The position numbers and the translations under genes were made by a program. From Bacillota bacterium (GTDB lineage: Bacteria; Bacillota_E; Symbiobacteriia; Symbiobacteriales; Symbiobacteriaceae), in the NCBI GenBank assembly GCA_003242675.1, contig QGVE01000006.1:1-45626 (forward strand): a DNA stretch of 45,626 bases, in the 5' to 3' direction. Under the pieces are notes generated by a model, which was given only the letters and a program-made list of their open reading frames with translations, had not been told where the DNA came from and made no database searches. Positions 1,357 through 28,141 of this stretch are shown one piece after another (positions within the stretch are counted from its first letter, which is position 1; each line of letters starts with the position of its first letter).

Positions 1357-2630
<1,274 letters not shown>

Positions 2631-2645
2631 GTCTCTGCCTCCTCT

Positions 2646-4631: not shown

Positions 4632-4632
4632 C

Positions 4633-11017: not shown

Positions 11018-12085
11018 ATGTCCCACCGGCACGACCCCCTCGCGCGCCGCTCCGCCCGGCGCGAGTGGCGCCGGCGTGAGGCTCGGCGCAGGCGCTACGC
11101 CCGCAGACGGGCCCTGGCCTTGCTCGTCCTGATCGGCGTGCTGGTGGGGCTGGGCTTCGGCGTGCGCTGGGCCGTCATCCGCATCCGCCAGGCCCTGGCA
11201 CCTGAGCCCGACGCCCCGGCCGCGTCCGCGCCGGCAGCCCATGCGCCCGAGGCCCTTCCCTTTGCCCCCGCGGTTGTGCTGGAGGCCCCGGACCTCACCG
11301 GCGACGGCGAAGCCGAGCGGGTCGCGGTGTCCGCCCCCGACAGCGGCCGGATCCAGCTGGCCCTCGTCGCCGGGTGGGGGCGCGAGGCGCCGCTGCTGGG
11401 CCAGCCGGTCACCGCTCCGGAGGGCACGGTGTCCCTGATGGACCTGCCCCGGGCCCAGGACCTGCTGGTCTGGCGGGGATCCCTCCCCGCCGCGGGCGAA
11501 CCGCTGGAGGTCTCCGTTGGCGGGGAGATCGCCCTGGAGGCCCGGGGCGGGGAGCCCATCTTCCGGGCATGGGCCCTGGATCCCGAGCAGGGGCTGGTGC
11601 CGGCGGACTACTACGCGGCGCTGGCGCCGCTCACGCCCCCCGAGCCGACGGTGATCCTGGTCGACAAGGGGCTCAACGTGCTCTGGTACTACGAGGGCGG
11701 CGACCTGGTCCAGACCGCCCGCGTGTCCACCGGACGGCACATCGCCGGTCCCGACCCCTCGCCCGACAACTGGGAGGAGAACTGCCTGACCCCCGCGGGC
11801 CGGTTCACCGTCACCCTGAAGGTGCCGGGCATGCCCTACTTTAAGGAGGGAATCCCCGCCCTGGACCCCGCCAATCCCCTGGGCACCCGCTGGATCGGCT
11901 TCAGCGTCTTCGAGGGCGACGACGGGTCGCTCTGGGCCATTCACGGGACCAACGCCCCCGAGGCCCTGGGGCGGTGGAACTCGGACGGGTCCATCCTGAT
12001 GAGCAACGGCGAAGTGGAGCGGCTCTACGACCGGGTGGAGCTGGGCACGCCGATCCTCATCACCAACAGCCTGGAGGGGACGTAG
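11018..12085 (+). CDS. Membrane-anchored YkuD-fold protein with altered catalytic motif
   Basis: The 355 residues start with a strongly basic cytoplasmic segment (1-33, rich in Arg). One transmembrane helix (about 34-52) and an Ala/Pro linker follow, then a beta-rich region and a C-terminal L,D-transpeptidase (YkuD) domain from about 205. The domain keeps the HGTNAP motif (H309) and the trailing V-x-x-L-Y-D and G-T-P-I-L-I elements. Where active enzymes have S-H-G-C-I-R-M it reads S322-D323-G324-S325-I-L-M. The nucleophilic Cys is thus Ser (codon 11990-11992) and the preceding His is Asp. The ATG has GAGGAGG upstream. It may be a non-catalytic peptidoglycan-binding relative or a serine variant. 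Confidence 0.8.
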
Positions 12086-12166
12086 CCGCCTTTCGGGCGT
12101 CCCCGGGAGCCCCACAGGCACCCGACCCGGAAACGGAGCCGCGTGCCCCGGCCGGGAGAACGGAAC

Positions 12167-12198
12167 ACCGGCGACCGCCCTGCCGAGCGGTCGCCGGT
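12167..12198. terminator. Shared terminator between convergent genes
   Basis: A perfect 12-bp stem (ACCGGCGACCGC / GCGGTCGCCGGT) with an 8-nt loop lies between the convergent YkuD-like and DUF4349 genes. On the plus strand it runs into a short T-rich stretch (TTTCGGTTTCG). It probably serves both directions. Confidence 0.75.
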
Positions 12199-12209
12199 TT
12201 CGGTTTCGC

Positions 12210-13247
12210 TTACGGCGCCTCGGCTCCCGGGCCGCCCGCGTCCTCCCGTCCGCCGGCCGGCTCGCCGCCGCCCTCCGCCGGCGCCGTCGGGGCATTCGCC
12301 GCAGTCGCCGCCGGGCCGGGGCCTCCGCCGGTCGGCGGGCTGCGCCGCGCCCCCCGTCTGCGCGCGGCGAGCCAGATCAGGAGGGCGAGGATCCCGCCCA
12401 GCACGGTCAGGAAGAGCAGACCGGGGATCATGCCCGCGACGGCCACCAGAAGCCCTTCCGCCAACTCCAGGGTAGCGTTCCACGAGAAGAGGAAGCTGTC
12501 GCGCATCCGCTCGCCCAGGGTCTGCGGGTTGCGGGAAGGCTCCGGCGCCCCGGGCTCGTACAGGTTGACGCTGACGGTGCTGAAGGCCACCTGGTTGGCG
12601 AGGACGCTAAAGCGCCCCTTCAGCGACTCCAGTTCGGCCGTCACGCGGGCGATCTCCCGCTCCAGCTCGAGCATTTCGGAGATGGTGCCGCTCCGCTCGT
12701 ACAGCTTGTTCAGCTGGGCAAGATGGGCCTCGGCGGTCGCGATGCGCGCCTCCAGGTCCACGTACTGCTCGGTGACGTCGTCGGTCCACTGGCGCAGGCT
12801 GCGGACTTCGCCCAGCCCCCGGATGAGCTCCAGCAGCGAGCCGAATTGCCCGGCTGGCACCCGCAGCCGCATCGTCACGTTCCGGCCGTACTCCCGGGTG
12901 CCGCTCATCTCGCTCTCCTGGACGTAACCCCCCACCCGGGCCAGGGCGGCCTCGATCGCGCGCTGGGCCTCGTCCACGTCCCTGACGTGCAGCTCGACCT
13001 CCGCGTTTCGGACGATCTTCCGGTCCGTCACCGCGGCGCTGGCCTCGTCCACGGCGGCTTCCGCGGTGTCCCGGATGGTCAGGGCCCTGACCCCGGCGTC
13101 TGCCGCCGGCGCCCGGGCGGACGTCGGCGCCCCGCCGCTGGCGGCTTGACCCGAACCTTGCGGGGCCGCAACCTCCCCAGCGCCGCAGCCGCTGAGCACG
13201 AGGGACAGGACCACCAGGAGCGCGAGCCAGATCCTCTTCTTTCCCAT
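12210..13247 (-). CDS. DUF4349 lipoprotein
   Basis: The protein has 345 residues from the ATG at 13247 (site AGAGGGG 9 nt upstream). A lipoprotein signal ends in the lipobox LSGC with C21 as the modified residue. After an Ala-rich spacer, a DUF4349 domain (about 70-270) contains the typical RxAEVELHV strand, the GGYVQESE turn and a long coiled coil (about 170-215, DLEARIATAEAHLAQLNKLY). A C-terminal transmembrane helix at about 265-290 is followed by a basic, Pro/Gly-rich tail. It would thus be tethered at both ends. Function is unknown for the family. An in-frame ATG at 13277 would add 10 residues before the signal peptide. Confidence 0.85.
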   Translation of the reverse strand: MGKKRIWLALLVVLSLVLSGCGAGEVAAPQGSGQAASGGAPTSARAPAADAGVRALTIRDTAEAAVDEASAAVTDRKIVRNAEVELHVRDVDEAQRAIEAALARVGGYVQESEMSGTREYGRNVTMRLRVPAGQFGSLLELIRGLGEVRSLRQWTDDVTEQYVDLEARIATAEAHLAQLNKLYERSGTISEMLELEREIARVTAELESLKGRFSVLANQVAFSTVSVNLYEPGAPEPSRNPQTLGERMRDSFLFSWNATLELAEGLLVAVAGMIPGLLFLTVLGGILALLIWLAARRRGARRSPPTGGGPGPAATAANAPTAPAEGGGEPAGGREDAGGPGAEAP

Positions 13248-13318
13248 GGCGGGCAACCCCTCTCTGCGCTTGTGCATCTTGCCCTATAGACGGCGGCGGT
13301 GCGGCGCCGGTTTCCTGG

Positions 13319-14845
13319 CTACACCGGCGTCACGGGCCGCTTCTTCGCCGGCCAGTTCTGCTGTCTCGTCTCGTAGAAGGCGAATCGGGCCAGCAGCTCC
13401 TCCCGCACCCGCTCGAAGGGGATGAGCGCGTCGACGACCAGCTCCGACGCCAGCCGGTAGATGTCGATGTCCCGCCGGTACTCCTCCCGGAGCCGTTCGA
13501 CGTAGGCCGGCCGCTCCTCCGGAGGCAGCTCGGCGATCTTGTTGGCATAAACGGCGTTGACCGCCGCCTCGGGCCCCATCACGGCGATCGAGGCGGTGGG
13601 CAGGGCCAGGGTGCAGTCCGGGTCGAAGGCGGGGCCGGCCATGGCGTAGAGGCCGGCGCCGTACGCCTTGCGCACCACCAGGCAGATCTTCGGCACCGAG
13701 GCCTCGCTGACCGCGGCGATGAACTTCGCCCCGTGCCGGATGATGCCCTGCCGCTCCACCTTCGTGCCGATCATGAACCCCGGCACGTCGGCCAGGAACA
13801 GCAGCGGGATCTCGAAGGCGTCGCAGAGCCAGATGAAGCGGGCCGCCTTGTCGGCGGAGTCGACGAACAGCACGCCGCCCTTCACCCGGGGCTGGTTGGC
13901 CACGACCCCCACGACGCGGCCGCCGATGCGGGCAAGGCCGGTGATCAGCTCCGGGGCGAAGCGCTTCTTGATCTCGAACCACGAGCCCTCGTCGATGATC
14001 CGGTCGATCAGCTCGTACATGTCGAAGGGGGCGTTCTGATTGGCCGGGACGATCTCCTCCAGCGGCCGGCCGGGTTTGGGGTCCACCGGCGGGGCCGGCG
14101 CCGGCCGCTCCCCGGTGCGCTGCGGGAAGTAGCTGAGGTAGCGGCGGGCGAGCCGGATGGCCTCCTCCTCGGTCTCGCACAGCACATCGCCGCAGCCGGA
14201 GACGGCGGTGTGCATCTCCGCGCCGCCCATCTCCTCCAGCGTCACCTTCTCGCCGATCACCATCTCGGCCATGCGAGGCGAGCCCAGGTACATCGAGGCG
14301 TTGCCCCTGACCATGAAGACCACGTCGCAGAAGGCCGGGATGTAGGCGCCCCCGGCTGCGCTGGGGCCGAAGAGCAGGCAAACCTGCGGGACGAGGCCGC
14401 TCAGCCGCACCTGGTTGTAGAAGATGCGGCCGGCGTGGCGGCGGCCGGGGAACATCTGCACCTGGTCGGTGATGCGCGCCCCGGCGGAGTCCACCAGGTA
14501 GAAGATCGGAATGCGCAGCCGCTCGGCAGTCTCCTGGATCCGCAGGATCTTCTCCACCGTGCGGGCCCCCCACGAACCCGCCTTGACGGTGGAGTCGTTG
14601 GCCATGATCGCCACCGGGCGCCCGTCGATCCGCCCGAGCCCGGTGATCACGCCATCGGCCGGCAGGTCGGGGGCCTCGCAGTTGGCGAACAGGCCGTCCT
14701 CCACGAAGGAGCCCTCGTCCAGGAGCAGCCGGATCCGCTCCCGGGCGAACAGCTTCCCCTTCGCCCGCGCCTGCTCGTGGTACTTGGGCGCGCCCCCTTG
14801 CTTGATTTGCGCCTCCCGCGCCTTCAGCTCAGCGTCCAGACTCAT
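13319..14845 (-). CDS. Biotin-dependent acyl-CoA carboxylase, carboxyltransferase (beta) subunit
   Basis: This is the 508-residue carboxyltransferase that moves CO2 from carboxybiotin to an acyl-CoA. It has both crotonase-like halves: the N-half with YLVDSAGARI and GPSAAGGAYIPAF, and the C-half with ADVPGFMIG and KAYGAGLYAM. It resembles methylcrotonyl/geranyl-CoA carboxylase beta subunits and B. subtilis YngE more than the shorter AccD of fatty-acid synthesis. The ATG at 14845 has GAGAGG upstream. It is the last gene of the operon. A small biotinyl protein lies at 19618-19824, but no biotin carboxylase is in the window, so that partner must be encoded elsewhere. Confidence 0.9.
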   Translation of the reverse strand: MSLDAELKAREAQIKQGGAPKYHEQARAKGKLFARERIRLLLDEGSFVEDGLFANCEAPDLPADGVITGLGRIDGRPVAIMANDSTVKAGSWGARTVEKILRIQETAERLRIPIFYLVDSAGARITDQVQMFPGRRHAGRIFYNQVRLSGLVPQVCLLFGPSAAGGAYIPAFCDVVFMVRGNASMYLGSPRMAEMVIGEKVTLEEMGGAEMHTAVSGCGDVLCETEEEAIRLARRYLSYFPQRTGERPAPAPPVDPKPGRPLEEIVPANQNAPFDMYELIDRIIDEGSWFEIKKRFAPELITGLARIGGRVVGVVANQPRVKGGVLFVDSADKAARFIWLCDAFEIPLLFLADVPGFMIGTKVERQGIIRHGAKFIAAVSEASVPKICLVVRKAYGAGLYAMAGPAFDPDCTLALPTASIAVMGPEAAVNAVYANKIAELPPEERPAYVERLREEYRRDIDIYRLASELVVDALIPFERVREELLARFAFYETRQQNWPAKKRPVTPV

Positions 14846-14896
14846 CGGCCTCTCCCCCTCTGCCCGTTCTCCCCCGAAGTGGTGGCGCTCCCTGCC

Positions 14897-15862
14897 CTAC
14901 GGGAGCGCCCGCAAGGCCCGCTCGATGGCGCTGATCCCCTCTTCCTCGGCCGCCAGGGCCCGGTCCAGGCAGGCGGCCACTTCCCGTCGGCGCTCCGCCA
15001 GGTGCTCGCCCGGGTAGGGCGCCAGCTTCACCGCCTCCCCCAGCGCCTCCGCAGCCCGCCGGTAGGCCTCGGCGGCCCGGCCGAGCGTCTCCGCCTCCGG
15101 GTACTTGCCGGCCAGTTCCCTCAGATAGGCCGCGGCGTCGGTGCGGGCCGCGTGCAGCACGGCGAGGTTGTAGCTGTGGCCCCGCCCCGGCTCCGGACCG
15201 TGCAGCGGCAGCCCGGCAGTGGCGAGGGTGGTGCGCCAGTACTGGTAGGCCTTCCGGCCGTGCTGCAGCCACATGTCCCGGGAGGCCGGCGCCCAGAAGT
15301 GGTCGACGGCAAAGCGCAGCGAGGCCACCTCGGCCGCCCGCCGGTCGAAGTCAGGGCTCAGGTCCAGCAGGGTGATCACCTCTGCGCGGGTGAACGGCGC
15401 GTGGTCCGCCGGCGGCCAGCAGTCCACGTCCATCCACCGGGGCTCCGCCGGCGCCTCCGGCGTCAGGCAGGCCCAGCGGCCTCCCTCGACCCCCACCACC
15501 AGGCCGTACTCCCCGCAGCCCAGCAGGTCATAGACGATCGCGGGCCGGCCCCCCTCCACGGCCCGCGCCACCCGCTCGATCACCTCTTCCCGCACGCCGG
15601 CGTAGCCCGGATCCCCGGGGCGGGCGGCGACCCGCTTGAACCAGGCCCCCAGCCGCTCCCAGAGCGGGAAGACCTCGTGGAAGTTCAGCTCGTGCGGCGC
15701 AGAGGGCGAGATGACCAGGTCCAGCGTGAGGCGGAAGGCGTGGCCCGTCACGCCCATCAGGTATGCCGGCTCCAGCCTGCGCCCGGCGTGGGCCAGGAGC
15801 CCTCCCAGGGCGCCCACCAGGGTGACTCGGTGCTCCAGCATTGCGACATCCTGCAGCAGCAA
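14897..15862 (-). CDS. Unrecognised protein of the acyl-CoA operon (possible C39/BtrH-like fold)
   Basis: I do not recognise this 321-residue protein with confidence. The N-terminal 190 residues are mixed alpha/beta, with notable stretches YLMGVTGHAFRL, LLGCGEYGLVVGV and FTRAEVITLLDL. These recall the papain-like C39/BtrH-N fold, but no catalytic Cys-His pair stands out. The C-terminal part (about 210-320) is helical, with YNLAVLHAARTDAAAYL followed by Ala/Glu-rich helices. I place the start at a TTG at 15862 because GGAGG lies 7 nt upstream; an ATG at 15841 is the alternative. The 51-bp gap to the carboxyltransferase and the shared strand put it in the same operon. Confidence 0.6.
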   Translation of the reverse strand: MLLQDVAMLEHRVTLVGALGGLLAHAGRRLEPAYLMGVTGHAFRLTLDLVISPSAPHELNFHEVFPLWERLGAWFKRVAARPGDPGYAGVREEVIERVARAVEGGRPAIVYDLLGCGEYGLVVGVEGGRWACLTPEAPAEPRWMDVDCWPPADHAPFTRAEVITLLDLSPDFDRRAAEVASLRFAVDHFWAPASRDMWLQHGRKAYQYWRTTLATAGLPLHGPEPGRGHSYNLAVLHAARTDAAAYLRELAGKYPEAETLGRAAEAYRRAAEALGEAVKLAPYPGEHLAERRREVAACLDRALAAEEEGISAIERALRALP

Positions 15863-15988
15863 GTTGCTCCCTCCGGTTGTCCGTCTTCCTGTGCGAGCGC
15901 GTGCACTCTCTCCCGTGCGGCCGCTGCGCCAGTGCTGCGGGTTCATCGCCCGGGAGGTGCGGCCTCCCCGCCCCGTCCGGGGCGCCGG

Positions 15989-16759
15989 CTACTCGCCGCG
16001 GAACTCCGGCGGGCGCCGCTCGGCAAACGCCCGCAGCCCCTCCAGCCGGTCCCGGGTCGGGACGATGGAACGGTACTCCTGCCACTCGGCCGCCAGGGCG
16101 GCCGCGAGCCCGGGGGCGGCATCGAGGGCCCGCTTGGCCGCGCGCACGGCGAGCGGCGCCTGGCGCGCGATCTCCTCCGCCAGGGCCCGGGCGGCGGTGA
16201 GCAGCTGCTCCCGCCTGACCACCCGGTTCACCAGCCCCAGGGCCAGCGCCTCCTCCGCCGTGAGCCGGCGCGCGGTGAAGATCAGCTCCTTGGCCCGCGC
16301 CGGCCCGACCAGGGCCGCCAGCCGGGCGCAGCCGCCGGCGCCGGGGATGATGCCCCAGCCCACCTCCGTGAGCCCCATCTGCGCGTCGTTCGCGGCCAGG
16401 CGGATGTCGCAGGCCAGCGCAAGCTCCAGCCCGCCGCCGAACGCGGCGCCGTGGATGGCGGCGATCACCGGCATCGGCAGCTGGGCGATGCTGTCCACGG
16501 CCGTGCGGAGTGCCTGCACCGTCTCCAGCACGGCCGGCTCGTCCATCCCCTGCCGCTCCTTCAGGTCCGCGCCGCTGCAGAACGACCGGGCCGCGCCGCC
16601 ATGCACGACCACCGCCCGCACCGACCGGTCGACCGCCAGCAGGTGCGCCGCGGCCTGCAGGTCCCGGATCAGCGCGCGGGACAGCGCGTTGTGCCGCTCC
16701 GGGTTGTTCAGGGCCAGCCACGCGACGGGCCCCTCACGGGTCAGGATCACCTTCTCCAT
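15989..16759 (-). CDS. Enoyl-CoA hydratase, methylglutaconyl-CoA hydratase-like
   Basis: This crotonase-fold hydratase has 256 residues. The oxyanion-hole motifs are CSGADLKER (61-69) and HGAAFGGGLELALACD (103-118). The two catalytic glutamates are E132 (GLTEVGWGIIPGAGG) and E158 (AKELIFTAR). That AKELIF-x-AR signature is the one found in AUH/LiuC/YngF methylglutaconyl-CoA hydratases, and this fits the adjacent carboxylase subunit. The ATG at 16759 has GGAGGAGG 8 nt upstream. The 126-bp gap after this gene contains no feature I recognise. The exact substrate is inference. Confidence 0.87.
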   Translation of the reverse strand: MEKVILTREGPVAWLALNNPERHNALSRALIRDLQAAAHLLAVDRSVRAVVVHGGAARSFCSGADLKERQGMDEPAVLETVQALRTAVDSIAQLPMPVIAAIHGAAFGGGLELALACDIRLAANDAQMGLTEVGWGIIPGAGGCARLAALVGPARAKELIFTARRLTAEEALALGLVNRVVRREQLLTAARALAEEIARQAPLAVRAAKRALDAAPGLAAALAAEWQEYRSIVPTRDRLEGLRAFAERRPPEFRGE

Positions 16760-16827
16760 CCCCAAGCCTCCTCCCCCATGCCGGCCACGATGAGCCCGAC
16801 CGGGCCGGGCCCCCGGCCCAAGGCTCG

Positions 16828-17715
16828 CTAGCCGGGGGCGATCAGTCCGAACCCCCGGAACGCGCGCAGCGCCCCCAGGGTCGCCTCCACCCGGTGAGCC
16901 CCCTCCGCCGGCCAGCCGCCGTCCGGCTCCTGCAGCCCGGCCAGCCGCTCCAGGAGTTCCACCGCCAGGCCCAGGTGGCGCGCCTCCAGGCCCAGCTCGA
17001 CGAAGGTGGTGAGCCACAGGGTGAGCTCCCCGGCCGTCAGCGCCCGGCCCCTCAGCAGGCTGCGGAGCGCCTCCGCCCCCGGATCGACCGGTGCGCCCAC
17101 CGGCGGCCGGCTCCACAGCGCCGCCGCAAAGATGAGCGTGGGGCTGTCCGCCCGTTCCGGGCCGCCGTTCAGGGCGGCCCGCAGCCACCGAGCGCTGCGG
17201 ACGATGGGGTCCGGGTGCTCGGGCTCCATCACGAGCAGCGTGTATGCGGCCAGGGCGGTGACGTGCTCCGGCGAGGGCGCGCCGGCGGAGTGCCCCGGCT
17301 CCACCCAGGACCCATCCACCTGCTGGGACCGGCGCACGAACGACACGCCCCGCCCCGCCATCGGCGCGCCGGCCAGGGGCGGGATGTCCCGCAGCCAGAC
17401 CAGCAGGGTGCAGGTCGCCGCCACCGACGACGCTGCGGCCGTCTCCTGCGGGCCCGGCAGGGCGTCCGGTGCCTGATCCGGACCGACCGCGAGCTCCGGT
17501 GCAGCCCCGGCGCCGAGACCGGGGGCACCACGCCGGGAGACGGCGAGGGCCGGGAATCCGCCGTCCCGGTTCTGCACCCCTTCCAGGGCCTTCACCACCG
17601 ACCGGTCGGGCTCTTCCCGGCCGAGGATCCCTTCCAGCCGCGCGACGTCCACCGCGCTGCCGTGGGCCCGCACAAACGCCGCGGCCCGTGCCACGTCGAT
17701 CTGCGGAAGTGCCAC
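16828..17715 (-). CDS. Prenyltransferase/squalene-cyclase repeat (alpha/alpha-toroid) protein
   Basis: The 295 residues contain three QW-type repeats of the terpene-cyclase/prenyltransferase toroid: at 41-55 (ALEGVQNRDGGF), 124-137 (FVRRSQQVDGSW) and 252-268 (ERLAGLQEPDGGW). Helical pairs separate them. There is no signal peptide and no DxDD or other acid motif of active cyclases. The length is about half that of a squalene cyclase, so it may be a single-toroid binding or scaffold protein. The GTG start at 17715 is only 6 nt after the stop of the AtuA C-terminal-like gene, with GGAGGAG overlapping that stop, so translation is coupled. A role in handling isoprenoid acyl chains is my inference. 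Confidence 0.7.
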   Translation of the reverse strand: MALPQIDVARAAAFVRAHGSAVDVARLEGILGREEPDRSVVKALEGVQNRDGGFPALAVSRRGAPGLGAGAAPELAVGPDQAPDALPGPQETAAASSVAATCTLLVWLRDIPPLAGAPMAGRGVSFVRRSQQVDGSWVEPGHSAGAPSPEHVTALAAYTLLVMEPEHPDPIVRSARWLRAALNGGPERADSPTLIFAAALWSRPPVGAPVDPGAEALRSLLRGRALTAGELTLWLTTFVELGLEARHLGLAVELLERLAGLQEPDGGWPAEGAHRVEATLGALRAFRGFGLIAPG

Positions 17716-17721
17716 GAAGAA

Positions 17722-18045
17722 CTACTCCTCCACCGTGATCTCCATGCGCAGCAGGGCGGCGGCGAAGGTCTTGCCCAGGTTGTCGCTGCGCAGGGAGCGC
17801 GGCGCGCCGCCGCCCAGGGCGCCATGTACCACGAATTTCAACGCCTGGACGTTGGGCACCTCCCACCGCTCCACGGGCCCGCTGGCGACCGGACGGAAGT
17901 ACTCCGCGACCCGCTCGGCCGTCACGTGCTTGCGGATGATCTCCCAGGCCTCGTCGTCGTTGGCGAAGAGCGAGATGTCCGAGGCATCGCCCTTGTCGCC
18001 GGAGCGGGCGTGGCAGATGTCGATCAGGCGGATCCGCCTGGCCAC
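17722..18045 (-). CDS. AtuA C-terminal-like protein (ferredoxin-like fold)
   Basis: The 107-residue protein begins with the signature IDICHARSGDKGD and ends in VHGALGGG plus DNLGKTFAAALL. I know these motifs from the C-terminal domain of AtuA proteins of acyclic terpene utilisation. In longer AtuA proteins this domain is joined to the DUF1446 domain. Here it is a separate gene starting with GTG, 3 nt after the stop of the DUF1446 gene, with GAGGAGGTG as its ribosome binding site. The two products very probably form one complex. The biochemical activity of the family is not established. Confidence 0.82.
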   Translation of the reverse strand: MARRIRLIDICHARSGDKGDASDISLFANDDEAWEIIRKHVTAERVAEYFRPVASGPVERWEVPNVQALKFVVHGALGGGAPRSLRSDNLGKTFAAALLRMEITVEE

Positions 18046-18048
18046 CGG

Positions 18049-19416
18049 CTACACCTCCTCGACCGTGATCTGCACGTGCGGTTCGACCAGCTCCCGGGGG
18101 ATGAGCGTCGACCAGAGCCCCATCAGCTCCCGGGGCTGCGGCGTACCCGCGACCGCCGAGGCCGTGGGCGGGCCGGAGAGGAGCAGCGGCGGGAACTCCC
18201 GGGCCAGGATCTCGCAGTCCTGCTTGTTGCGGGTGCGGATCGCGATGCGCAGCCGGACCTCGTTGATCCGCTCCTCGTCCACCGGTTCGGGGGCCAGCGG
18301 TCCCCACAGGGAGTTGATGCCGATGTACTCCTCATGGATCTCCTCGGGCCGCACCCCGTGCATCTCCAGCCGCCTGCGGATGATCTCCGCCGCCCGCTTC
18401 GCCTTGCTGTAAGCCTTGGGCCAGCTGAACGAGATGTAGCCTTCCCCCATCCAGCCGTCGCTGTACCCCAGCAGGGCCTTCAAGGTCGGCGGCGCGGGCC
18501 GGCCCTTCGTGCCGCTGACCCTCACCCGGTTCTCGCCGACCTGCTCCAGCCGGGTGGTGGTCAGGTCGCAGATCACGTCGGGGGTGACGTAGCTGGTGGG
18601 GTCGTGGACTTCGTAGAGGAACTGCTCCTTCACGCCTTTCAGGTCGACCCGGCCGCCGGTGCCGGGGGCCTTGGTCAGGACGAAGGTGCCGTCCTCGCTC
18701 ACCTCGGCGATGGGGAAGCCGATCCGGTGCAGGTCCGGGATCTCCTCCCAGCCCACCTGGTAGTTGCCGCCGGTCACCTGGCCGGAGCACTCCATCAGGT
18801 GGCCCAGGACGATGCCCTGGGCCAGCCGGTCCCAGTCGTCCCGCGCCCAGCCGAACTCGTGGATCAGGGGGCCCAGGAACTGGGCGGTGTCGGTGGTGCG
18901 GCCGGTGATCACCACGTCCGCCCCGGTGGCCAGGGCGTCGGCGACGACGCCCGCGCCCAGGTAGACGGAGGCGAAGAGCACCCGGTCCCGCACGTCCTTC
19001 AGCGCCTGCCCCGTCTCCTTGTCGGCGAAGGTGACCCCCCGGGCCTCCAGCTCGTCCAGCCGGTCGTAGATGTCGTCGCCCGTGACGCAGGCGATCTTCA
19101 GCCGGATCCCCAGCTCCCGGGCCACCTGGGCCACCGCCCTGGCCGCGCCCCGGGGGTTGATGCCGCCGGCGTTGGTGATCAGCCGGATCCCCTTCTCCTT
19201 GGCGATGGGCAGCAGGTTGCGCATCATCGGAACCACGTCGCGGGTGTAGCCCCCCGAGGGGTCCCGGCGCCGGCCCTTCTCCAGGATGGCCAGGGTCAGC
19301 TCCGCCAGCGCGTCGAAAGCGATGTACTTCACGTCGCCGTACCGGGCGACGTCCAGCACCGGCAGGAGCGAGTCGCCGTAGAACCCCTGCCCGGCACCGA
19401 TGCGAACGGTGCGCAC
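18049..19416 (-). CDS. AtuA-family protein (DUF1446 domain)
   Basis: The 455-residue protein matches the DUF1446 domain of AtuA, named from the citronellol/geraniol (acyclic terpene) utilisation cluster of Pseudomonas. Typical stretches are IGAGQGFYGDS at the N-terminus, ITNAGGINP, CVTGDDI and GADVVITGRTTDTA. AtuA is required for terpene catabolism, but its reaction is unknown. I place the start at the GTG at 19416 (GGGAG 7 nt upstream). The open frame extends to 19464 with no better start. The 3-nt gap to the next gene shows coupling. A non-coding 200-bp gap separates it from the biotinyl gene. Confidence 0.85.
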   Translation of the reverse strand: MRTVRIGAGQGFYGDSLLPVLDVARYGDVKYIAFDALAELTLAILEKGRRRDPSGGYTRDVVPMMRNLLPIAKEKGIRLITNAGGINPRGAARAVAQVARELGIRLKIACVTGDDIYDRLDELEARGVTFADKETGQALKDVRDRVLFASVYLGAGVVADALATGADVVITGRTTDTAQFLGPLIHEFGWARDDWDRLAQGIVLGHLMECSGQVTGGNYQVGWEEIPDLHRIGFPIAEVSEDGTFVLTKAPGTGGRVDLKGVKEQFLYEVHDPTSYVTPDVICDLTTTRLEQVGENRVRVSGTKGRPAPPTLKALLGYSDGWMGEGYISFSWPKAYSKAKRAAEIIRRRLEMHGVRPEEIHEEYIGINSLWGPLAPEPVDEERINEVRLRIAIRTRNKQDCEILAREFPPLLLSGPPTASAVAGTPQPRELMGLWSTLIPRELVEPHVQITVEEV

Positions 19417-19617
19417 GCTATCTCCCCCTCTGCCTTTCGCCGTTGCGTTCCCCCGCGGCGCCACACGGGCCCGGAAGCCGCGCGGCGCATTCGGACCGGA
19501 CAGGTTGTGGTCCGGCCTCCGGGCCTCGCCGCTCGCGCAGGGCTGCAGCCCTTGCCCGGGCTCCGGGCCTGTCCGCCGCCCGCGCAGGGCGGCCGTGGCC
19601 GGTGGCCCGTGCCCGGG
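19417..19617 (-). repeat. Non-coding gap with a short imperfect direct repeat
   Basis: This 201-bp gap within the operon holds no plausible gene. It contains an imperfect direct repeat: copy A at 19517-19542 and copy B at 19561-19589, starting 44 bp apart. The copies share an identical CTCCGGGCCT start and an identical CGCGCAGGG end. Between them is the 12-bp palindrome GGGCTGCAGCCC. These could be RNA structures that set relative expression within the operon, but that is only a guess. Confidence 0.4.
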
Positions 19618-19824
19618 TCAGCCCAGCTCCACCAGGACGTCGCCCTCGTTGACGAAGTCGCCCTCGCCGACCCTGACCGCCGTCACGGTGCCCCCCACCT
19701 CGGCGGCGATGGGGATCTCCATCTTCATCGACTCGAGGATCACCACGTCCTGGCCGGGGAGCACCGCATCCCCCGGCTTCACGAGCACCTTCCAGACCGT
19801 GCCCGCCATGCTCGCCCGGATCAT
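19618..19824 (-). CDS. Small biotinyl (BCCP-like) carrier protein
   Basis: This is a 68-residue stand-alone biotinyl domain, comparable to YngHB of B. subtilis. The biotin-accepting lysine is K34 in ESMKMEI, flanked by the two symmetrical halves KPGDAVLPGQDVVILE and VGEGDFVNEGDVLVEL. The ATG at 19824 has GGAGGAGGG about 10 nt upstream. An upstream open frame to 19926 overlaps the dehydrogenase and has no domain. It should carry carboxybiotin for the carboxyltransferase at 13319. That requires a biotin carboxylase, which is not in this operon. Confidence 0.9.
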   Translation of the reverse strand: MIRASMAGTVWKVLVKPGDAVLPGQDVVILESMKMEIPIAAEVGGTVTAVRVGEGDFVNEGDVLVELG

Positions 19825-19849
19825 CGCCTCTCGCCCTCCTCCACCGACC

Positions 19850-20995
19850 TCAGCACCCCAGCTGCCGGGCGATGACCAGCCGCTGGATCTCGCTGGTGCC
19901 CTCGCCGATCTCGGTGAGCTTCGCATCCCGCCAGTAGCGGGAGACCGGCAGGTCCTCCATGTAGCCGGCCCCGCCGTGGATCTGGATCGCCTGGTTGGCC
20001 GCGCGGACCGCGGTCTCGGAGGCGAACAGCTTCGCCATCGCCGCCTCCCGGGTGAACGGCCGCCCCTGGTCCTTCAGCCAGGCGGCCTTCAGCACCATGT
20101 TCCGGGCGAGCTCGATCTCCGTGGCCATGTCGGCCAGCTTGAACTGGATCGCCTGGAACTTGGAGATGGTCTGGCCGAACTGGACCCGCCGCTTGGCGTA
20201 GGCCAGGGCCGCCTCAAACGCCGCCTGGGCGATGCCCACCGCCATGGCGCCGATGGAGATCCGGCCGCCGTCCAGCGTCGCCATGAACTGGCGGAAGCCC
20301 TCGCCCTCCTGTCCCAGCAGGGCGTCCGCCGGCAGCCGCACGTTGTCGAAGAAGAGCGGGCGGGTGTCGGACGAGCGGAGCCCCATCTTGTCATACGCCG
20401 GCCCGATGGTGAACCCCGGGGTCGGGTTGGGGACGATGAAGGCGCTGATGCCCCGGTGGCCCATACCGGGCCGGGTGACGGCGGTGCAGACGATGTAGCC
20501 GCAGTAGCTGGCGTTGGTGATGAAGGCCTTCGAGCCGTTCAGGACCCACCCGTCGCCGTCCCGGACCGCCGTGGTCTTGGTCGCGGCCGCGTCCGAGCCG
20601 GCCTCGGGCTCCGTGAGGCCGAAGGAGGCCAGGTACTCGCCCCGGGCGGCCCCGGGCAGCCAGCGCAGCCTCTGCTCTTCGGTGCCGAACTGGAAGACGG
20701 GCCCCATCCCGATGGAGCAGTGGGCCGCGAGGGTGAGGCCCAGCGACCCGTCCACCCGGCTGATCTCCTCCACCGCGAGCACGTACGACACCGTGTCGCC
20801 GCCGGTGCCGCCGTACCGCTCGGGAAAGGGGATGCCCATCAGGCCCAGCTCGCCCATCCTGCGCACCAGCTCGATCGGAAACCGTCCGGTCTTGTCCCGT
20901 TCCGACGCGCCGGGGGCGACCTCGCCCTCGGCAAACTCGCGCGCCAGGTCGCGGATCATCCGCTGCTCCTGGCTGAGCTCGAAGTTCAGGCTCAT
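19850..20995 (-). CDS. Acyl-CoA dehydrogenase
   Basis: This FAD-dependent dehydrogenase introduces the alpha-beta double bond into an acyl-CoA and passes electrons to ETF. The 381 residues are the normal length. The FAD/substrate motif is FGLTEPEAGSD (125-135), with the GHRGISAF strand, the RxQFGQ segment and IHGGAGYMEDLPVSR. The catalytic base is E365 in IGEGTSEIQ, the position used by short- and medium-chain enzymes; isovaleryl-CoA dehydrogenases use a different one. The ATG at 20995 has a GGAAGG-type site upstream. It is the first gene of the operon and is preceded by a 203-bp region with inverted repeats. Confidence 0.9.
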   Translation of the reverse strand: MSLNFELSQEQRMIRDLAREFAEGEVAPGASERDKTGRFPIELVRRMGELGLMGIPFPERYGGTGGDTVSYVLAVEEISRVDGSLGLTLAAHCSIGMGPVFQFGTEEQRLRWLPGAARGEYLASFGLTEPEAGSDAAATKTTAVRDGDGWVLNGSKAFITNASYCGYIVCTAVTRPGMGHRGISAFIVPNPTPGFTIGPAYDKMGLRSSDTRPLFFDNVRLPADALLGQEGEGFRQFMATLDGGRISIGAMAVGIAQAAFEAALAYAKRRVQFGQTISKFQAIQFKLADMATEIELARNMVLKAAWLKDQGRPFTREAAMAKLFASETAVRAANQAIQIHGGAGYMEDLPVSRYWRDAKLTEIGEGTSEIQRLVIARQLGC

Positions 20996-21054
20996 CCGTC
21001 CGCCCCTTCCTTCCCCGCGTCCAGGATGCGCCGCAATCGTTGTTCTTTTGTTTA

Positions 21055-21084
21055 CTGTTGTTTTATTCTCATTCCCCACAACAG
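21055..21084. repeat. Second inverted repeat in the divergent promoter region
   Basis: CTGTTGT (21055-21061) and ACAACAG (21078-21084) form a perfect 7-bp inverted repeat with a 16-bp spacer in an AT-rich patch. It lies just upstream of the acyl-CoA dehydrogenase start and could be another operator or part of the leader. Confidence 0.35.
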
Positions 21085-21094
21085 ATTCCTGCCG

Positions 21095-21136
21095 GATGTG
21101 ACAAAATATGCGCCGTCGGCGGAAAAACGTCACATC
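21095..21136. promoter_or_regulatory. Inverted repeat, candidate operator of the acyl-CoA operon
   Basis: A perfect 8-bp inverted repeat, GATGTGAC (21095-21102) and GTCACATC (21129-21136), with a 26-bp spacer lies between the divergent acyl-CoA operon and the gene at 21199. On the minus strand a weak TATTTT -10 candidate falls inside the spacer, next to one half-site. The layout suits a dimeric repressor. The regulator is unknown. Confidence 0.45.
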
Positions 21137-21198
21137 ACATGCCCGGGGGCCGGTCCGCATAAGGTCATCTGGAAGCGAGTAGACGGGAGGGATTCGCC

Positions 21199-22587
21199 AT
21201 GGCAGTCCATCCGCCTGTGGGCCTGGCGGTCGCCAGGCTGACGGAACTGAGACCGGCCTGGTCCCACCGGTACCACGAAGGCAGGCCGCTGGAAGGGTAC
21301 TGCCTCGTAAGCTGCGACCCGGGCTTCAGCCGGGTGACGCTGCTCGTGGAGAACGGCCGGACCCTGACCGACCGATCCGGCAGCGGCGGCTTCTATTACG
21401 AAGGTTGGCTCGTGGGGCCCGCGGGCGCCGTGAGCCTGGGGGCGTTCAACGTGGGCCCGGACGGCCGCGGCGCCGCCAGCCGGGTCATCGCCGCTTCCCA
21501 GGTGATGCAAGGGCGGGCGGAGCTGGTGCGCGTCACCGTCGAGCCCTTCGGCGGCACTCCGTCAGGCGGCGAGGCCATCCTGGAGGGGAAGCTGGTCTGG
21601 CTGGAGGCGCCGGCGGCCGCACCGGAGCCGACGGCCGCGCCGTCCCCGGAAGCCGCCCGGGGCCCGGCAGCCCCGGCCTGGAATGCGGGTCCGGCCGTCG
21701 GCGCCGCCGGTGCCTCCGCCGCCCCCGCCGCGGCGGAGGCGCGCGGCGCGGCTTTCCCGTCCCGCGCCGAGCCGGCGGTGAACTGGGCGAACCCCTTCAC
21801 CGGCACATCTCCTGCGGCCGCCCCGGAGAAGCCGGTCGCCGCCGGCGCCGTGGGGGTGCTGACCGACCAGCCGGCGGGCGCGGCCTCCGCGCCGGACGCC
21901 GCCCAGCTCGGCGCTGACGCCGCGGGCGACCGGGCACAGACGCCGGCCCCTGCGGTTCTGCCTACCGCCGAAGGCGGTGAGGCTTCCTCCGGCCAGGACG
22001 CCGCGACGGACGGAACAGCGCCAGCCGTCGCCGGTCCGGGCACACCCGGGACCCCGCCGGCGGCCGATCCCGCCTTCGCCTTCCCCACCCCCGGTCCGGG
22101 CTCAGCGGCCTCCGACCTCGCCAGTGCCTCCGCGCAGGCCGCCGCCGATGCCGCGCCGGGAACGGACACGGCGCCGCCGCAGCCCGCGCCGCGCCACGTG
22201 AACCCCCTGTCCCTCCAGGTGCCCCTGGTCCAGCGCCACCCGATGGCCCCGCGCGCCGTCGGCACGGCGACCCTCAACCTGCGCCGCGGCCACCTCCTGC
22301 TTTCCCTGCGCGGCCTGCCCAGCCCCACGGCGCTCGGCCGCGACAGCAAGAGCGGACGCCCGTTCAACGCCTACCGCGTCTGGCTCATCAACCAGAAGAC
22401 CCAGATGCGCACCCCGGCGGGCTACTGCGAGCGCGTCTGGGGCGAAAACTTCCGCTTCGAGGCAGACGGCCTGCCGCTCAACCGCTGTGACACGATCCTC
22501 GTCACCGCCGAGGACCGGTCCGTCGCCACGACCGCCGGCCACCCGGCCCCCCAGGTCCTCATCGGCACCTACGACCCGCGGCTCTGA
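21199..22587 (+). CDS. Protein with two similar terminal domains joined by a long Ala/Pro linker
   Basis: The 462 residues have an N-terminal domain (about 10-135) and a C-terminal domain (about 345-462) joined by some 200 residues of Ala, Pro, Gly and Thr. Both ends look alike. Each has a GxxLLLxL-like or VTLLVENG strand, an RPFNAYRVWLI or GFYYEGWLV strand and a GxFxVxxDG turn, which is the pattern of the anti-sigma-K (RskA C-terminal) fold. There is no signal peptide, membrane helix or sigma-binding N-domain, so an anti-sigma role is doubtful. The ATG has GGGAGG 8 nt upstream. The function is unknown to me. Confidence 0.6.
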   Translation: MAVHPPVGLAVARLTELRPAWSHRYHEGRPLEGYCLVSCDPGFSRVTLLVENGRTLTDRSGSGGFYYEGWLVGPAGAVSLGAFNVGPDGRGAASRVIAASQVMQGRAELVRVTVEPFGGTPSGGEAILEGKLVWLEAPAAAPEPTAAPSPEAARGPAAPAWNAGPAVGAAGASAAPAAAEARGAAFPSRAEPAVNWANPFTGTSPAAAPEKPVAAGAVGVLTDQPAGAASAPDAAQLGADAAGDRAQTPAPAVLPTAEGGEASSGQDAATDGTAPAVAGPGTPGTPPAADPAFAFPTPGPGSAASDLASASAQAAADAAPGTDTAPPQPAPRHVNPLSLQVPLVQRHPMAPRAVGTATLNLRRGHLLLSLRGLPSPTALGRDSKSGRPFNAYRVWLINQKTQMRTPAGYCERVWGENFRFEADGLPLNRCDTILVTAEDRSVATTAGHPAPQVLIGTYDPRL

Positions 22588-22630
22588 GCCTGGAAGGGAC
22601 TGCCCGCAGGGGAAACGGCCGCGCGCCTTG

Positions 22631-22650
22631 AATCACCCCTCGGGGTGATT
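22631..22650 (+). promoter_or_regulatory. Hairpin enclosing the ribosome binding site of the YerB-like gene
   Basis: AATCACCC and GGGTGATT form a perfect 8-bp stem with a CTCG loop, ending 4 nt before the ATG at 22655. The right arm contains GGGGTGA, the only Shine-Dalgarno-like sequence of the gene, so the site would be masked when the stem forms. It may also act as a weak terminator of the preceding gene. Confidence 0.5.
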
Positions 22651-22654
22651 CGCA

Positions 22655-23689
22655 ATGCGACGACTCCTGCCGATCCTGCTGACCCTCGCACTCCTCGCCG
22701 GCTGCGCCAGCCGGACCGCGGCCCCCGCCGAGCCGGCGCCGGAGCCGGCCGAACCGGGCGAGGCGGCGCCCCCTGCGGAGCAGCCCGAGTCCCCGCCGGA
22801 GCCGGCCGCGCCGACCCTGACCGGCGAACCGGTCTATCTGCTGGGGCCGGCGCCCGACGCCCTCTGGGCCGGTCCGGTCTCGGTCGTGGTCGAGAACTCG
22901 CCCGGCGCCCGCCCCCAGGCCGGCCTCAACCAGGCCGACCTGGTGGTGGAGACGCTGACGGAGGCCGAGATCACGCGGTTCTTCACCCTCTACTGGACTA
23001 CGCCCGCCGCCAAGATCGGGCCGGTGCGCAGCGCCCGCCAGGGTTTCGTCGACATGGCGGACGCGTACAACACGCCCTTCGCCCACGCCGGCGGCAGCAT
23101 GGAGGCCCTGGCCATGCTCCGGGCGGCGTGGGGCCCCCGCAACCTCGACGAAATCTACACCGCGGGCGGCTACTTCTTCCGGACGTCGGACCGGGAGGAA
23201 CCCCACAACCTGTACACCAGCACCGATCTGCTCGGGCAGGCGATCGTGGACCGGGGGATCGAGATGACGCCCGTGCCGACCACGGAGCGCTCCGCCGCCG
23301 TGCCCGCGGTGGGGGAGCACACGGCCGTCGACGTGAACTGGCACCGGCTGAACCACGCCCGCTGGGTGTGGGAGGACGGCCGGTACGTGCGGTACACCGA
23401 CGGCGCCCTCCACGTGGATGAGGCCGGCGAGCCCCTCCGCGCGGTTAACCTTCTCTTCTTCGAGGTGGGCGGCGTCAACCGGGGCGTCGACCTCGGCTGG
23501 ACCCTCTACCTCTGGGACGGCGGTCCGGCGACGATTCTGGTGGCCGGCCACCTCTTCGAGGGCACCTGGCGGCTGGAGCCGGGCGGGTTCGTCCTCTATC
23601 CGGCAGAGGGCGGACAGCTCCCGCTCCTGGCGCCCGGGCCCACCTGGGTGCACCTGATCACGGCGGAATCCGACTTCGCGGTGCAGTAA
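22655..23689 (+). CDS. YerB-like DUF3048 lipoprotein
   Basis: The 344 residues start with a lipoprotein signal whose lipobox ends LLAGC (C17). A Pro/Glu/Ala spacer (to about 55) is followed by the DUF3048 N-terminal domain, with the signatures VVVENSPGARPQAGLNQADLVVE, interrupted here as family motifs, and GPVRSARQGFVDMA. A C-terminal DUF3048 domain lies after about 220. YerB-type proteins are extracytoplasmic lipoproteins of unknown function. The gene lies 67 bp after the previous plus-strand gene and probably forms a transcript with its neighbours. Confidence 0.85.
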   Translation: MRRLLPILLTLALLAGCASRTAAPAEPAPEPAEPGEAAPPAEQPESPPEPAAPTLTGEPVYLLGPAPDALWAGPVSVVVENSPGARPQAGLNQADLVVETLTEAEITRFFTLYWTTPAAKIGPVRSARQGFVDMADAYNTPFAHAGGSMEALAMLRAAWGPRNLDEIYTAGGYFFRTSDREEPHNLYTSTDLLGQAIVDRGIEMTPVPTTERSAAVPAVGEHTAVDVNWHRLNHARWVWEDGRYVRYTDGALHVDEAGEPLRAVNLLFFEVGGVNRGVDLGWTLYLWDGGPATILVAGHLFEGTWRLEPGGFVLYPAEGGQLPLLAPGPTWVHLITAESDFAVQ

Positions 23690-26663: not shown

Positions 26664-27569
26664 CTACCTCAGCACGATCGCCGTGATGGTCAGCAGGGAG
26701 AACGCGACGCTGAGGTATCCGTTCACGTTGAAGAAGGCCGTATCCACCCGGCTCATGTCCTGCGGCGAGATGATGCTGTGCTCGTAGTGGAGCAGCCCCG
26801 CCACCAGCGCCCATGCGGCCAGGTACAGCCACGAGGCCAGCGGCCAGGCCGTCGGAGGCCAGAGCGCGCCGGGCAGGAGCCCGGCCACGACGCCCAGCAG
26901 CCCGGCGAGCCCGACCACCCCCAGGTGCAGGGCCCGGGAGATGTGCAGGGCGGCGGCGAGCCCGAAGCGGGCCGGGATCGAATGCACCCCGTTGGCCCGG
27001 TCCGCCTCCATGTCCTGCGTGCCGTAGATGATGTCGAAGCCGGCGTTCCACAGCGTGATCAGGGCGACCAGGACGAGGAGCTCCGGCCCCACGGCGCCCC
27101 GCACGGCGATGTACGCCCCGAAGGCCCCCCACGAGACGGCGAGCCCGAGCCACACATGGCAGAGCCAGGTGAACCGCTTGGTGAACGGGTAGATGGTGAA
27201 GGTCAGCACGGCCAGCGGGAAGAGCTTCACGGCCAGGGGGTGCAGGTTGGCCGCCGCCACCAGGAGCAGGACCAAGGCCACGGCCACGTAGGCCCAGACC
27301 TCGCCCCGCGTGATCTTCCCGGACGGAAGATGGCGCATGGCGGTCCGGGGCGTCTTGCGGTCGATGTCCTCGTCGAAAAGCCGGTTCATCGCCATGGCCG
27401 CGGTGCGGGCGCCCGCCATGGCGACCGTGATCCAGAAGAGCTGGCGCCCGGTGGGCCAGCCCCCGGCGGCCAGGAAGGCGCCCAGGTAGGCGAACGGCAG
27501 GTTCAGGACGGTGTGCTCGAACTTCACCAGCTCGGCGAAGGTCTTGACCTTCCGGAGGCCGGCGCTCAC
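26664..27569 (-). CDS. mqnP: UbiA-family prenyltransferase (menaquinone, MqnP-like)
   Basis: This integral membrane prenyltransferase attaches a polyprenyl chain to an aromatic ring. The 301 residues have about eight hydrophobic helices. The two Asp-rich motifs are N62-R63-x2-D66-x3-D70 and G-T-Q-D186-x3-D190. In the futalosine menaquinone route MqnP prenylates the naphthoate intermediate, and a UbiD decarboxylase gene lies two genes upstream, which supports this role. The GTG at 27569 overlaps the stop of the acetyltransferase gene (GTGA), with AAGGGG 6-7 nt upstream. A TTG two codons earlier is the alternative. UbiA itself (ubiquinone) is less likely in this lineage. Confidence 0.87.
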   Translation of the reverse strand: MSAGLRKVKTFAELVKFEHTVLNLPFAYLGAFLAAGGWPTGRQLFWITVAMAGARTAAMAMNRLFDEDIDRKTPRTAMRHLPSGKITRGEVWAYVAVALVLLLVAAANLHPLAVKLFPLAVLTFTIYPFTKRFTWLCHVWLGLAVSWGAFGAYIAVRGAVGPELLVLVALITLWNAGFDIIYGTQDMEADRANGVHSIPARFGLAAALHISRALHLGVVGLAGLLGVVAGLLPGALWPPTAWPLASWLYLAAWALVAGLLHYEHSIISPQDMSRVDTAFFNVNGYLSVAFSLLTITAIVLR

Positions 27570-28117
27570 GCGCAACGCCCCTTTCCGGCCCGGTACTCGT
27601 CGCGCAGGATCGCCATGATCAGCGCGTCGTAGTACCGGCCGTTGATGTAGCCGTAGGAGCGGAGCAGCCCCTCCCGCACGAAGCCGGCCTTCTCGTAGGC
27701 CCGGATCCCCGCCGCGTTCTCGGCGTTCACGATCAGCCAGATCCGGTTCAGGTTGAACTGCTCAAAGCCCACCTGGACGAGCAGCCGCACGGCATCGGTG
27801 CCGTAGCCCTTTCCCCGGTACTCCCCCTCGCCGATCAGGATCGCCAGTTCGGCGGACCGGGCGACGTGATTGAAGTTGCGCAGGGTGCAGCCCCCGATGT
27901 GCTTGCCGTTCTCCAGCGCCTCGATGGCCCACTCCACGTGGCTCTGGGTGGAGGAGGCCGAAAGCTCCAGGTACTGGCGAATCTCCTCCCGGGAGAGGCG
28001 GCCGGGCCGCATCCCGAGGGTATCGGTGACGGCCGGGTCGTTCATCCAGCGATAGCGGTCCTCCAGGTCCCGGACGGGATCGACCCGGCGAAGCCGCACA
28101 AGCCGGCCCGTGTACAT
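27566..28117 (-). CDS. GNAT-family N-acetyltransferase (RimJ/SpeG-like)
   Basis: The 183-residue protein has the GNAT acetyl-CoA loop as GEYRGKGYGTDAV (about 97-109), preceded by the AELAILIGE strand and followed by NAENAAGIRAYEKAGF. It resembles RimJ/RimL and spermidine acetyltransferases; the acceptor cannot be read from sequence. It is translationally coupled to the prenyltransferase by a GTGA overlap and lies 24 bp after the UbiD-family gene. It is thus embedded in a menaquinone operon with no obvious reason. The ATG at 28117 has GGGGAGGGG upstream. Confidence 0.85.
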   Translation of the reverse strand: MYTGRLVRLRRVDPVRDLEDRYRWMNDPAVTDTLGMRPGRLSREEIRQYLELSASSTQSHVEWAIEALENGKHIGGCTLRNFNHVARSAELAILIGEGEYRGKGYGTDAVRLLVQVGFEQFNLNRIWLIVNAENAAGIRAYEKAGFVREGLLRSYGYINGRYYDALIMAILRDEYRAGKGRCA

Positions 28118-28141
28118 GTCAACCCCTCCCCCCGTCGCAAC

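What the first reader, a model, noticed from the sequence alone, without database searches (positions are those of the whole stretch)
13319..20995. Acyl-CoA operon combining yng/liu/atu parts with an AtuA-toroid module
Eight minus-strand genes encode acyl-CoA dehydrogenase, lone biotinyl protein, split AtuA, QW-repeat toroid protein, methylglutaconyl-CoA-hydratase-like crotonase, an unidentified protein and a carboxyltransferase. The core reactions (dehydrogenation, carboxylation, hydration of a beta-methyl enoyl-CoA) are those of leucine or acyclic terpene catabolism. The usual biotin carboxylase, lyase and acyl-CoA ligase are absent, and AtuA plus toroid take their place. The gene set as a whole is new to me. 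It may be a pathway for an isoprenoid or branched acyl chain in a spore former.
Basis: partly seen in the sequence, partly recalled or inferred. Interest (0 to 1): 0.75.

Follow-up and report, generated by a model that had tools for sequence, protein, structure and literature searches.

The report
Bacillus-like acyl-CoA operon, lyase swapped
A Symbiobacterium-like gene cluster that probably breaks down a branched acyl-CoA resembles a Bacillus operon in which the usual lyase gene has been replaced by a two-part AtuA protein, with two extra proteins whose named relatives come mostly from the same bacterial family.

Summary
The eight minus-strand genes exist as described. The contig comes from a Symbiobacterium-like spore former. 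Four genes (acyl-CoA dehydrogenase, 70-residue-type biotinyl protein, crotonase, carboxyltransferase) are 61, 59, 47 and 68% identical to the genes of a Bacillus yng-type operon, in the same order. In Bacillus, HMG-CoA lyase sits between biotinyl protein and crotonase. Here that slot holds AtuA, its small AtuA_ferredoxin partner and the toroid protein. AtuA is tentatively called a lyase in print, and a remote AtuA relative in the PDB is deposited as citramalate lyase subunit A. Best reading: a yng-type operon whose lyase step was taken over by the AtuA pair. It does not pass as a terpene (atu) operon: carboxyltransferase, dehydrogenase and AtuA fail the atu tests. Split AtuA is common. The unusual parts are the toroid protein and protein X. 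X has the fold of C39-like amide synthases (AziU3/U2, CtaG, CcbD) without a conserved thiol in its first helix. Of 11 relatives of these two that carry a taxon name, 8 are Symbiobacterium or Symbiobacteriaceae, and both proteins share contigs with AtuA far above chance. The substrate and the roles of toroid and X are unproven.

The parts
19850..20995 (-). acyl-CoA dehydrogenase (yngJ-like; Glu at the SCAD/MCAD catalytic position, not the isovaleryl-CoA dehydrogenase pattern)
19618..19824 (-). 68-aa biotinyl carrier protein (yngHB-like), ESMKME biotinylation motif
18049..19416 (-). AtuA (PF07287), 455 aa, GTG start, proposed lyase large subunit; in the slot of Bacillus HMG-CoA lyase
17722..18045 (-). 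AtuA_ferredoxin (PF23544) small partner, 3 nt after AtuA
16828..17715 (-). alpha/alpha-toroid protein with three Q..DGxW/F repeats; no DxDD/DxDT, thioester or DxC motif in 25 sequences
15989..16759 (-). crotonase (yngF-like), both catalytic Glu positions kept
14897..15862 (-). protein X, 321 aa, TTG start; predicted C39-like/AziU3-CtaG-CcbD fold without a conserved Cys in the first helix
13319..14845 (-). acyl-CoA carboxylase carboxyltransferase (yngE-like, 68% identical to Bacillus)

Best explanation
This is a yng-type branched acyl-CoA catabolic operon of a Symbiobacterium-like bacterium in which the HMG-CoA-lyase step is carried out by the two-subunit AtuA/AtuA_ferredoxin enzyme. Proposed flow: the dehydrogenase makes a 2-enoyl-CoA; the carboxyltransferase with the biotinyl protein, and a biotin carboxylase encoded elsewhere, makes a 3-methylglutaconyl-type diacid thioester; the crotonase hydrates it to a tertiary 3-hydroxy-3-methylglutaryl-type thioester; AtuA plus its partner cleaves that tertiary alcohol, releasing acetate or acetyl-CoA and a 3-oxoacyl product. 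Toroid and X are lineage-restricted accessory proteins, most likely binding or scaffold parts and not extra steps. Shown: gene identities, relation to the Bacillus genes, order, slot, predicted folds of X and toroid. Inferred: the reactions, the lyase role of this AtuA pair, the external biotin carboxylase, the roles of toroid and X.
For: Collinearity: Bacillus amyloliquefaciens L047 reads dehydrogenase, ligase, biotin carboxylase, biotinyl protein, HMG-CoA lyase, crotonase, carboxyltransferase; the window reads dehydrogenase, biotinyl protein, AtuA, AtuA_ferredoxin, toroid, crotonase, X, carboxyltransferase. Identities 61, 59, 47 and 68%, against 23 to 54% in the other loci. Window and Bacillus carboxyltransferases group together (96/97). 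AtuA as lyase: PMC4847356 (passages), PMC12016498 (passages, AtuA-like lyases thnQ and thnS), PDB 9erq/9evf titled citramalate lyase subunit A, matched by the AtuA profile at 2.5e-9. AtuA lies within 5 kb of a carboxyltransferase in 8 of 19 Pseudomonadota genomes with strong AtuA hits and of a listed HMGL-family (PF00682) gene in 0 of 19; of 47 full-length carboxyltransferase places 13 have HMGL within 8 kb, 8 have AtuA, none both. AtuA with DUF4387 in one row with a fumarate hydratase in Klebsiella L063 fits a citramalate-type lyase.
Against: No activity is measured. The AtuA lyase role is tentative or speculated in the papers seen, and 9erq is a remote relative known here by its PDB title only. 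The dehydrogenase lacks the isovaleryl-CoA dehydrogenase pattern, and the carboxyltransferase has Ala, not Phe, at the methylcrotonyl-CoA carboxylase gate and a shorter N-terminus, so leucine as source is not shown. An HMG-CoA lyase could lie elsewhere in the genome, which is not held. The zero overlap of AtuA and HMGL restates the known liu/atu division and is small (about 2.2 expected from 13 and 8 of 47). In 11 of the 19 genomes AtuA is not within 5 kb of a carboxyltransferase, and 6 of 13 plasmid AtuA regions have a citrate or TRAP transporter next to AtuA, so AtuA substrates vary.
Confidence: 0.5

Rival explanations
1. The carboxyltransferase works like propionyl-CoA carboxylase (alpha-carboxylation of a saturated acyl-CoA), and crotonase plus AtuA act on a different C-methylated diacid (citramalate or methylcitrate type). 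The operon then serves another branched acid, not an HMG-CoA route.
For: Best PDB relatives are propionyl-CoA carboxylase-type. The N-terminus is as short as in propionyl-CoA carboxylases (29 residues against 30 in two of three; 50-51 in 8 of 10 liu and atu frames) and the C domain has the PCC-like insertion. The window/yng clade lies on the PCC side of a midpoint-rooted tree. Six of 13 plasmid AtuA regions have a citrate or TRAP transporter next to AtuA.
Against: The active-site stretch FPGRRHAGRIFYNQ carries the three extra residues of methylcrotonyl types, absent in the PCC types aligned. The Bacillus operon with the same kind of carboxyltransferase includes an HMG-CoA lyase. The tree tool warns that long branches meet.
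Confidence: 0.25
2. An acyclic-terpene (atu) pathway for citronellyl/geranyl-type acids.
For: AtuA is present, and Ala in place of the methylcrotonyl Phe may leave a wider pocket (PMC4673880, passages).
Against: Carboxyltransferase 31-33% identical to five atu ones and outside their clade; dehydrogenase keeps a Glu that is Gly in three and Ala in one of four atu-cluster dehydrogenases (but the Sulfitobacter AtuA operon also keeps Glu); crotonase keeps a first Glu absent in all nine liu, atu and Rhodococcus crotonases aligned; AtuA outside the atu clade. Bacillus has the same Ala beside an HMG-CoA lyase.
Confidence: 0.08
3. Toroid and X form their own device (for example an acyl- or protein-binding or regulatory pair) that merely shares the operon, and AtuA is a lyase acting elsewhere.
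For: Both lack catalytic motifs of their fold families. Of 12 X contigs of 20 kb or more that also list AtuA, 10 list no toroid.
Against: Toroid, X and AtuA share four contig lengths, the shortest 7334 bases, and AtuA, its partner and toroid are spaced 3 and 6 nt apart.
Confidence: 0.15

Closest known systems
Bacillus yngJIHGFE operon (with yngHB; letter-to-enzyme map recalled)
   Same: Dehydrogenase, 70-residue biotinyl protein, crotonase and carboxyltransferase of the same lineages and order as in L047
   Different: No acyl-CoA ligase, biotin carboxylase or HMG-CoA lyase in the cluster; AtuA pair, toroid and X added
Pseudomonas atu operon (acyclic terpene utilisation)
   Same: AtuA with carboxyltransferase, dehydrogenase and crotonase
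   Different: Carboxyltransferase, dehydrogenase and AtuA of other lineages or patterns; AtuA fused in the eight atu-like clusters seen, split here; no toroid or X
AtuA operons of Rhodococcus gordoniae (L041), Sulfitobacter dubius (L043), Natrinema halophilum (L049)
   Same: AtuA with carboxyltransferase and dehydrogenase (split pair seen in L041 and L043)
   Different: Fused biotin carboxylase-biotinyl subunit in L041 and L043; no toroid or X
Citramalate lyase subunit A (PDB 9erq/9evf, AtuA family)
   Same: Same family at profile level (E 2.5e-9)
   Different: Remote; other substrate; known here by PDB title only
AziU3/U2, CtaG, CcbD (C39-like amide synthases and relatives)
   Different: 7-13% identity; no conserved Cys in the first helix, Glu118 where the papain-like pattern has His
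Squalene-hopene cyclases, drimenyl diphosphate synthase, thioester domains
   Different: DxDD/DxDT and thioester motifs absent in 25 of 25 sequences

Membership tests
yng operon | yngE-type carboxyltransferase, yngHB, yngJ and yngF relatives in order | tested here: met
   68/59/61/47% identity to L047, collinear
yng operon | ligase, biotin carboxylase and HMG-CoA lyase in the cluster | tested here: not met
   tblastn of the Bacillus three against the window: best E 0.66, 1.2, 0.25
atu operon | AtuA family protein | tested here: met
   PF07287 504.7 bits, cut-off 22.8
atu operon | geranyl-CoA carboxylase-type beta subunit (gate Gly, clade) | tested here: not met
   Ala with the methylcrotonyl-type insertion, and another clade
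atu operon | AtuD-type dehydrogenase and atu-clade AtuA | tested here: not met
liu (leucine/isovalerate) operon | isovaleryl-CoA dehydrogenase pattern (Ala at the SCAD Glu) | tested here: not met
   window EIGEGTSEI against EIGAGTSE in 5 of 5 liu loci aligned, of 9 fetched
liu (leucine/isovalerate) operon | methylcrotonyl-CoA carboxylase beta: gate Phe, three-residue insertion, longer N-terminus | tested here: not met
   insertion present, Phe and N-terminus not
AtuA/AtuA_ferredoxin pair | PF07287 and PF23544 in adjacent genes or fused | tested here: met
AtuA-type lyase | C-C cleavage of a tertiary hydroxy acid or thioester | not testable with these tools
   needs assay
class II terpene/triterpene cyclase (toroid) | DxDD/DxDT acid motif | tested here: not met
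   0 of 25
C39-like amide synthase/acyltransferase (X) | overall fold | tested here: met
C39-like amide synthase/acyltransferase (X) | catalytic Cys-His (CtaG C11, H128; CcbD C19, taken from PDB titles) | tested here: not met
   no conserved Cys at X positions 8-27; Glu118 in 29 of 30 at the pattern position of His (pattern reading, no residue-level structure alignment)

The most novel reading that the evidence does not exclude
AtuA, its ferredoxin-like partner, the toroid and X together form a new multi-subunit, lineage-restricted lyase or metabolon that replaced HMG-CoA lyase in a yng pathway, the toroid shielding a long or reactive acyl chain and X (an enzyme-dead or re-purposed C39-like acyl-handling protein) delivering or docking the thioester.
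Probability: 0.15. Interest if true: 0.65.

Novelty: new variant of a known kind. Interest (0 to 1): 0.42.

Why it matters
It offers a natural replacement experiment: an AtuA pair sits in the position of HMG-CoA lyase in an otherwise closely related operon. That makes the long-tentative lyase role of the widespread AtuA family directly testable, for example by complementing a Bacillus yngG deletion. It also names two uncharacterised protein families tied to acyl-CoA metabolism.

Tried and rejected
Terpene pathway as main reading: set aside on lineage and residue tests. Toroid as a terpene cyclase or thioester protein: motifs absent; fold hits are generic to alpha/alpha toroids. A toroid profile over 200 Pseudomonadota genomes gave weak partial hits in 7, the listed ones in open frames of 658-854 residues, squalene-cyclase size. 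Viral contigs held no confirmed relative of X or toroid. Rfam gathering search of the window: nothing. Promoter scan of 12000-22700: none; one terminator-like site, below the shuffle mean of 2.3. Sequence profile of X against the PDB gave only hits of E 0.4 or worse, mostly antibodies. Paper searches for citramalate lyase/AtuA mostly returned Portuguese medical papers; no paper for 9erq was seen. The first Pfam scans of flanking frames hit 14 frames without a family; ten alternative frames were scanned later, seven with a family.

Limits: contig co-occurrence rests on exact equality of longest-contig lengths listed (120 of 3808 AtuA rows listed; one search used 90 of them, all 120). Clustering at 90% identity and capped candidate lists make it a lower bound. 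Neighbourhoods of Neobacillus, Limnochorda and Caldinitratiruptor AtuA could not be fetched. One search warns that long branches meet and roots at the midpoint; flags L040 as a long branch and two rows for odd make-up. In some searches, 5 of 9 fetched liu loci were aligned (4 for the crotonase). Of the 13 AtuA plasmid regions, small partners were tested by Pfam in five and by blastp in one more; the rest are read from gene layout, one of them annotated DUF4387.
Full report
The genes. All eight minus-strand genes are present. Pfam and NCBIfam place the dehydrogenase, biotinyl protein, AtuA, AtuA_ferredoxin, crotonase and carboxyltransferase; the toroid protein reaches only a weak squalene-cyclase repeat and X has no family. 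Homologue lengths and start contexts give refined starts; gaps are 25, 201, 3, 6, 68, 126 and 51 nt. A DUF4349 gene follows on the same strand, its longest open frame starting at 13277, 41 nt after the carboxyltransferase. Named near relatives are Symbiobacterium: X is 84% identical to an S. thermophilum protein, the toroid 65%, AtuA 93%. The window also holds dipicolinate synthase and FtsK/SpoIIIE genes, in keeping with a spore former. No whole genome is held.

The operon is yng-like. In the plasmid collection the carboxyltransferase has its best match, 68% identity, in a Bacillus amyloliquefaciens record. That record reads dehydrogenase, AMP-binding ligase, biotin carboxylase, biotinyl protein, HMG-CoA lyase, crotonase, carboxyltransferase. 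That this is the yng operon, and which yng letter is which enzyme, is recalled; the record gives no yng names. The four shared genes are 61, 59, 47 and 68% identical to the window's and in the same order. The other three Bacillus proteins find nothing in the 45.6-kb window (best E 0.66, 1.2, 0.25). AtuA, AtuA_ferredoxin and toroid lie between biotinyl protein and crotonase, where Bacillus has the lyase; X lies between crotonase and carboxyltransferase. PMC517825 (passages) names yngJIHGFE, expected to govern lipid catabolism, among genes expressed early in the mother-cell programme of sporulation.

AtuA as the lyase. [quoted passage not shown] PMC9973270 (passages) says this was speculated; PMC12016498 (passages) lists two AtuA-like lyases, thnQ and thnS, for anaerobic naphthalene degradation. 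A profile of 22 AtuA proteins matches PDB 9erq/9evf, titled AtuA family / citramalate lyase subunit A, at 2.5e-9; the single window sequence reached only 0.14. In a Klebsiella plasmid an AtuA-DUF4387 pair lies in a row of genes that includes fumarate hydratase; PMC4682846 (passages) leaves the fate of (S)-citramalate in E. coli O157:H7 open. AtuA was found in 29 of 150 Pseudomonadota genomes; the 19 with strong matches were followed, the 10 with weak ones dropped. In those 19, AtuA lies within 5 kb of a carboxyltransferase in 8 and of an HMGL-family gene in none; in 11 it is not near a carboxyltransferase (two of these at 17-18 kb; several on short contigs). Of 47 full-length carboxyltransferase places, fragments dropped, 13 have HMGL within 8 kb, 8 have AtuA and none both; about 2 would be expected by chance, so this is weak on its own.

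AtuA pairs elsewhere. Twelve of 13 plasmid regions fetched through an AtuA hit show a split AtuA by layout; Rhodococcus ZPP is fused. In the 19 Pseudomonadota genomes 12 are fused by open frame and 7 have a separate small partner. Six of six small partners tested, the window's included, are PF23544. Three of the 13 regions also hold a carboxyltransferase and biotin carboxylase. Six have a citrate or TRAP transporter next to AtuA; L043 has both. No toroid or X was found by blastp in 26 AtuA-bearing loci (L022-L046 and L049, some cut short by contig ends), and none is annotated in the seven regions.

Not an atu or liu operon. By the rules in PMC4673880 (passages) methylcrotonyl types have a gate Phe after a three-residue insertion, geranyl types a Gly, and propionyl types lack a long N-terminal helix. 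The window and Bacillus proteins have the insertion, Ala at the gate, a short N-terminus and a PCC-like C-domain insertion. The tree puts window and Bacillus together (96/97), with Rhodococcus L048 and two haloarchaeal forms next (98/97), apart from liu and atu. The dehydrogenase keeps the SCAD-type Glu that is Ala in five liu and one atu-like locus and Gly in three atu loci; the Sulfitobacter AtuA operon also keeps Glu. The crotonase keeps two Glu. Window AtuA groups with Symbiobacterium, Caldinitratiruptor and a Symbiobacteriia protein plus three rows without such a name (94/89), beside a mixed group of Limnochorda, Neobacillus, other Firmicutes labels, Rhodococcus ruber and one Pseudomonadota genome (99/99 together), and outside the atu clade. 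So AtuA appears to have joined this carboxylase lineage separately from the atu operon. Leucine itself is not shown as the source.

Verdict. A yng-type acyl-CoA operon with the AtuA pair in the HMG-CoA-lyase slot and two lineage-restricted proteins: a new variant of a known kind. The substrate, the AtuA reaction here and the roles of toroid and X remain inferences. No paper describing this operon was seen in the searches, which cover open-licence papers only.

Noticed in passing
L063 7542-9261 and 14057-15601: Klebsiella plasmid row of AtuA, DUF4387, several dehydrogenases and fumarate hydratase; fits a citramalate-type lyase and the open question on citramalate fate in PMC4682846.
   Followed up: partly
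L045 4562-7667, L064 6643-9674, L065 5664-8690, L068 5654-8654: AtuA with a small gene behind it, directly after a citrate:proton symporter in four plasmid regions, without a carboxylase annotated in the stretch shown.
   Followed up: no
L041 5991-7037 and L042 9122-10030: A gene annotated phosphate acyltransferase lies next to or near AtuA in two Rhodococcus plasmids.
   Followed up: no
L043 5995-12352: Sulfitobacter AtuA pair with a carboxyltransferase that has the methylcrotonyl-type gate Phe and insertion, and no HMG-CoA lyase annotated in the 13-kb stretch: independent hint that AtuA pairs can follow a methylcrotonyl-type carboxylase.
   Followed up: partly
window 19417-19617: 201-nt G+C-rich gap between biotinyl protein and AtuA, the longest of the cluster; no Rfam match.
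   Followed up: partly
window 12210-13277: DUF4349 gene on the same strand close behind the carboxyltransferase; may be co-transcribed.
   Followed up: no
window 38472-43246, 26664-29596 and 1353-5755: Dihydrodipicolinate synthase family, aspartokinase, semialdehyde dehydrogenase, flavoprotein and dipicolinate synthase A genes in a row; UbiA and UbiD family genes; complex I genes at the other end.
   Followed up: no
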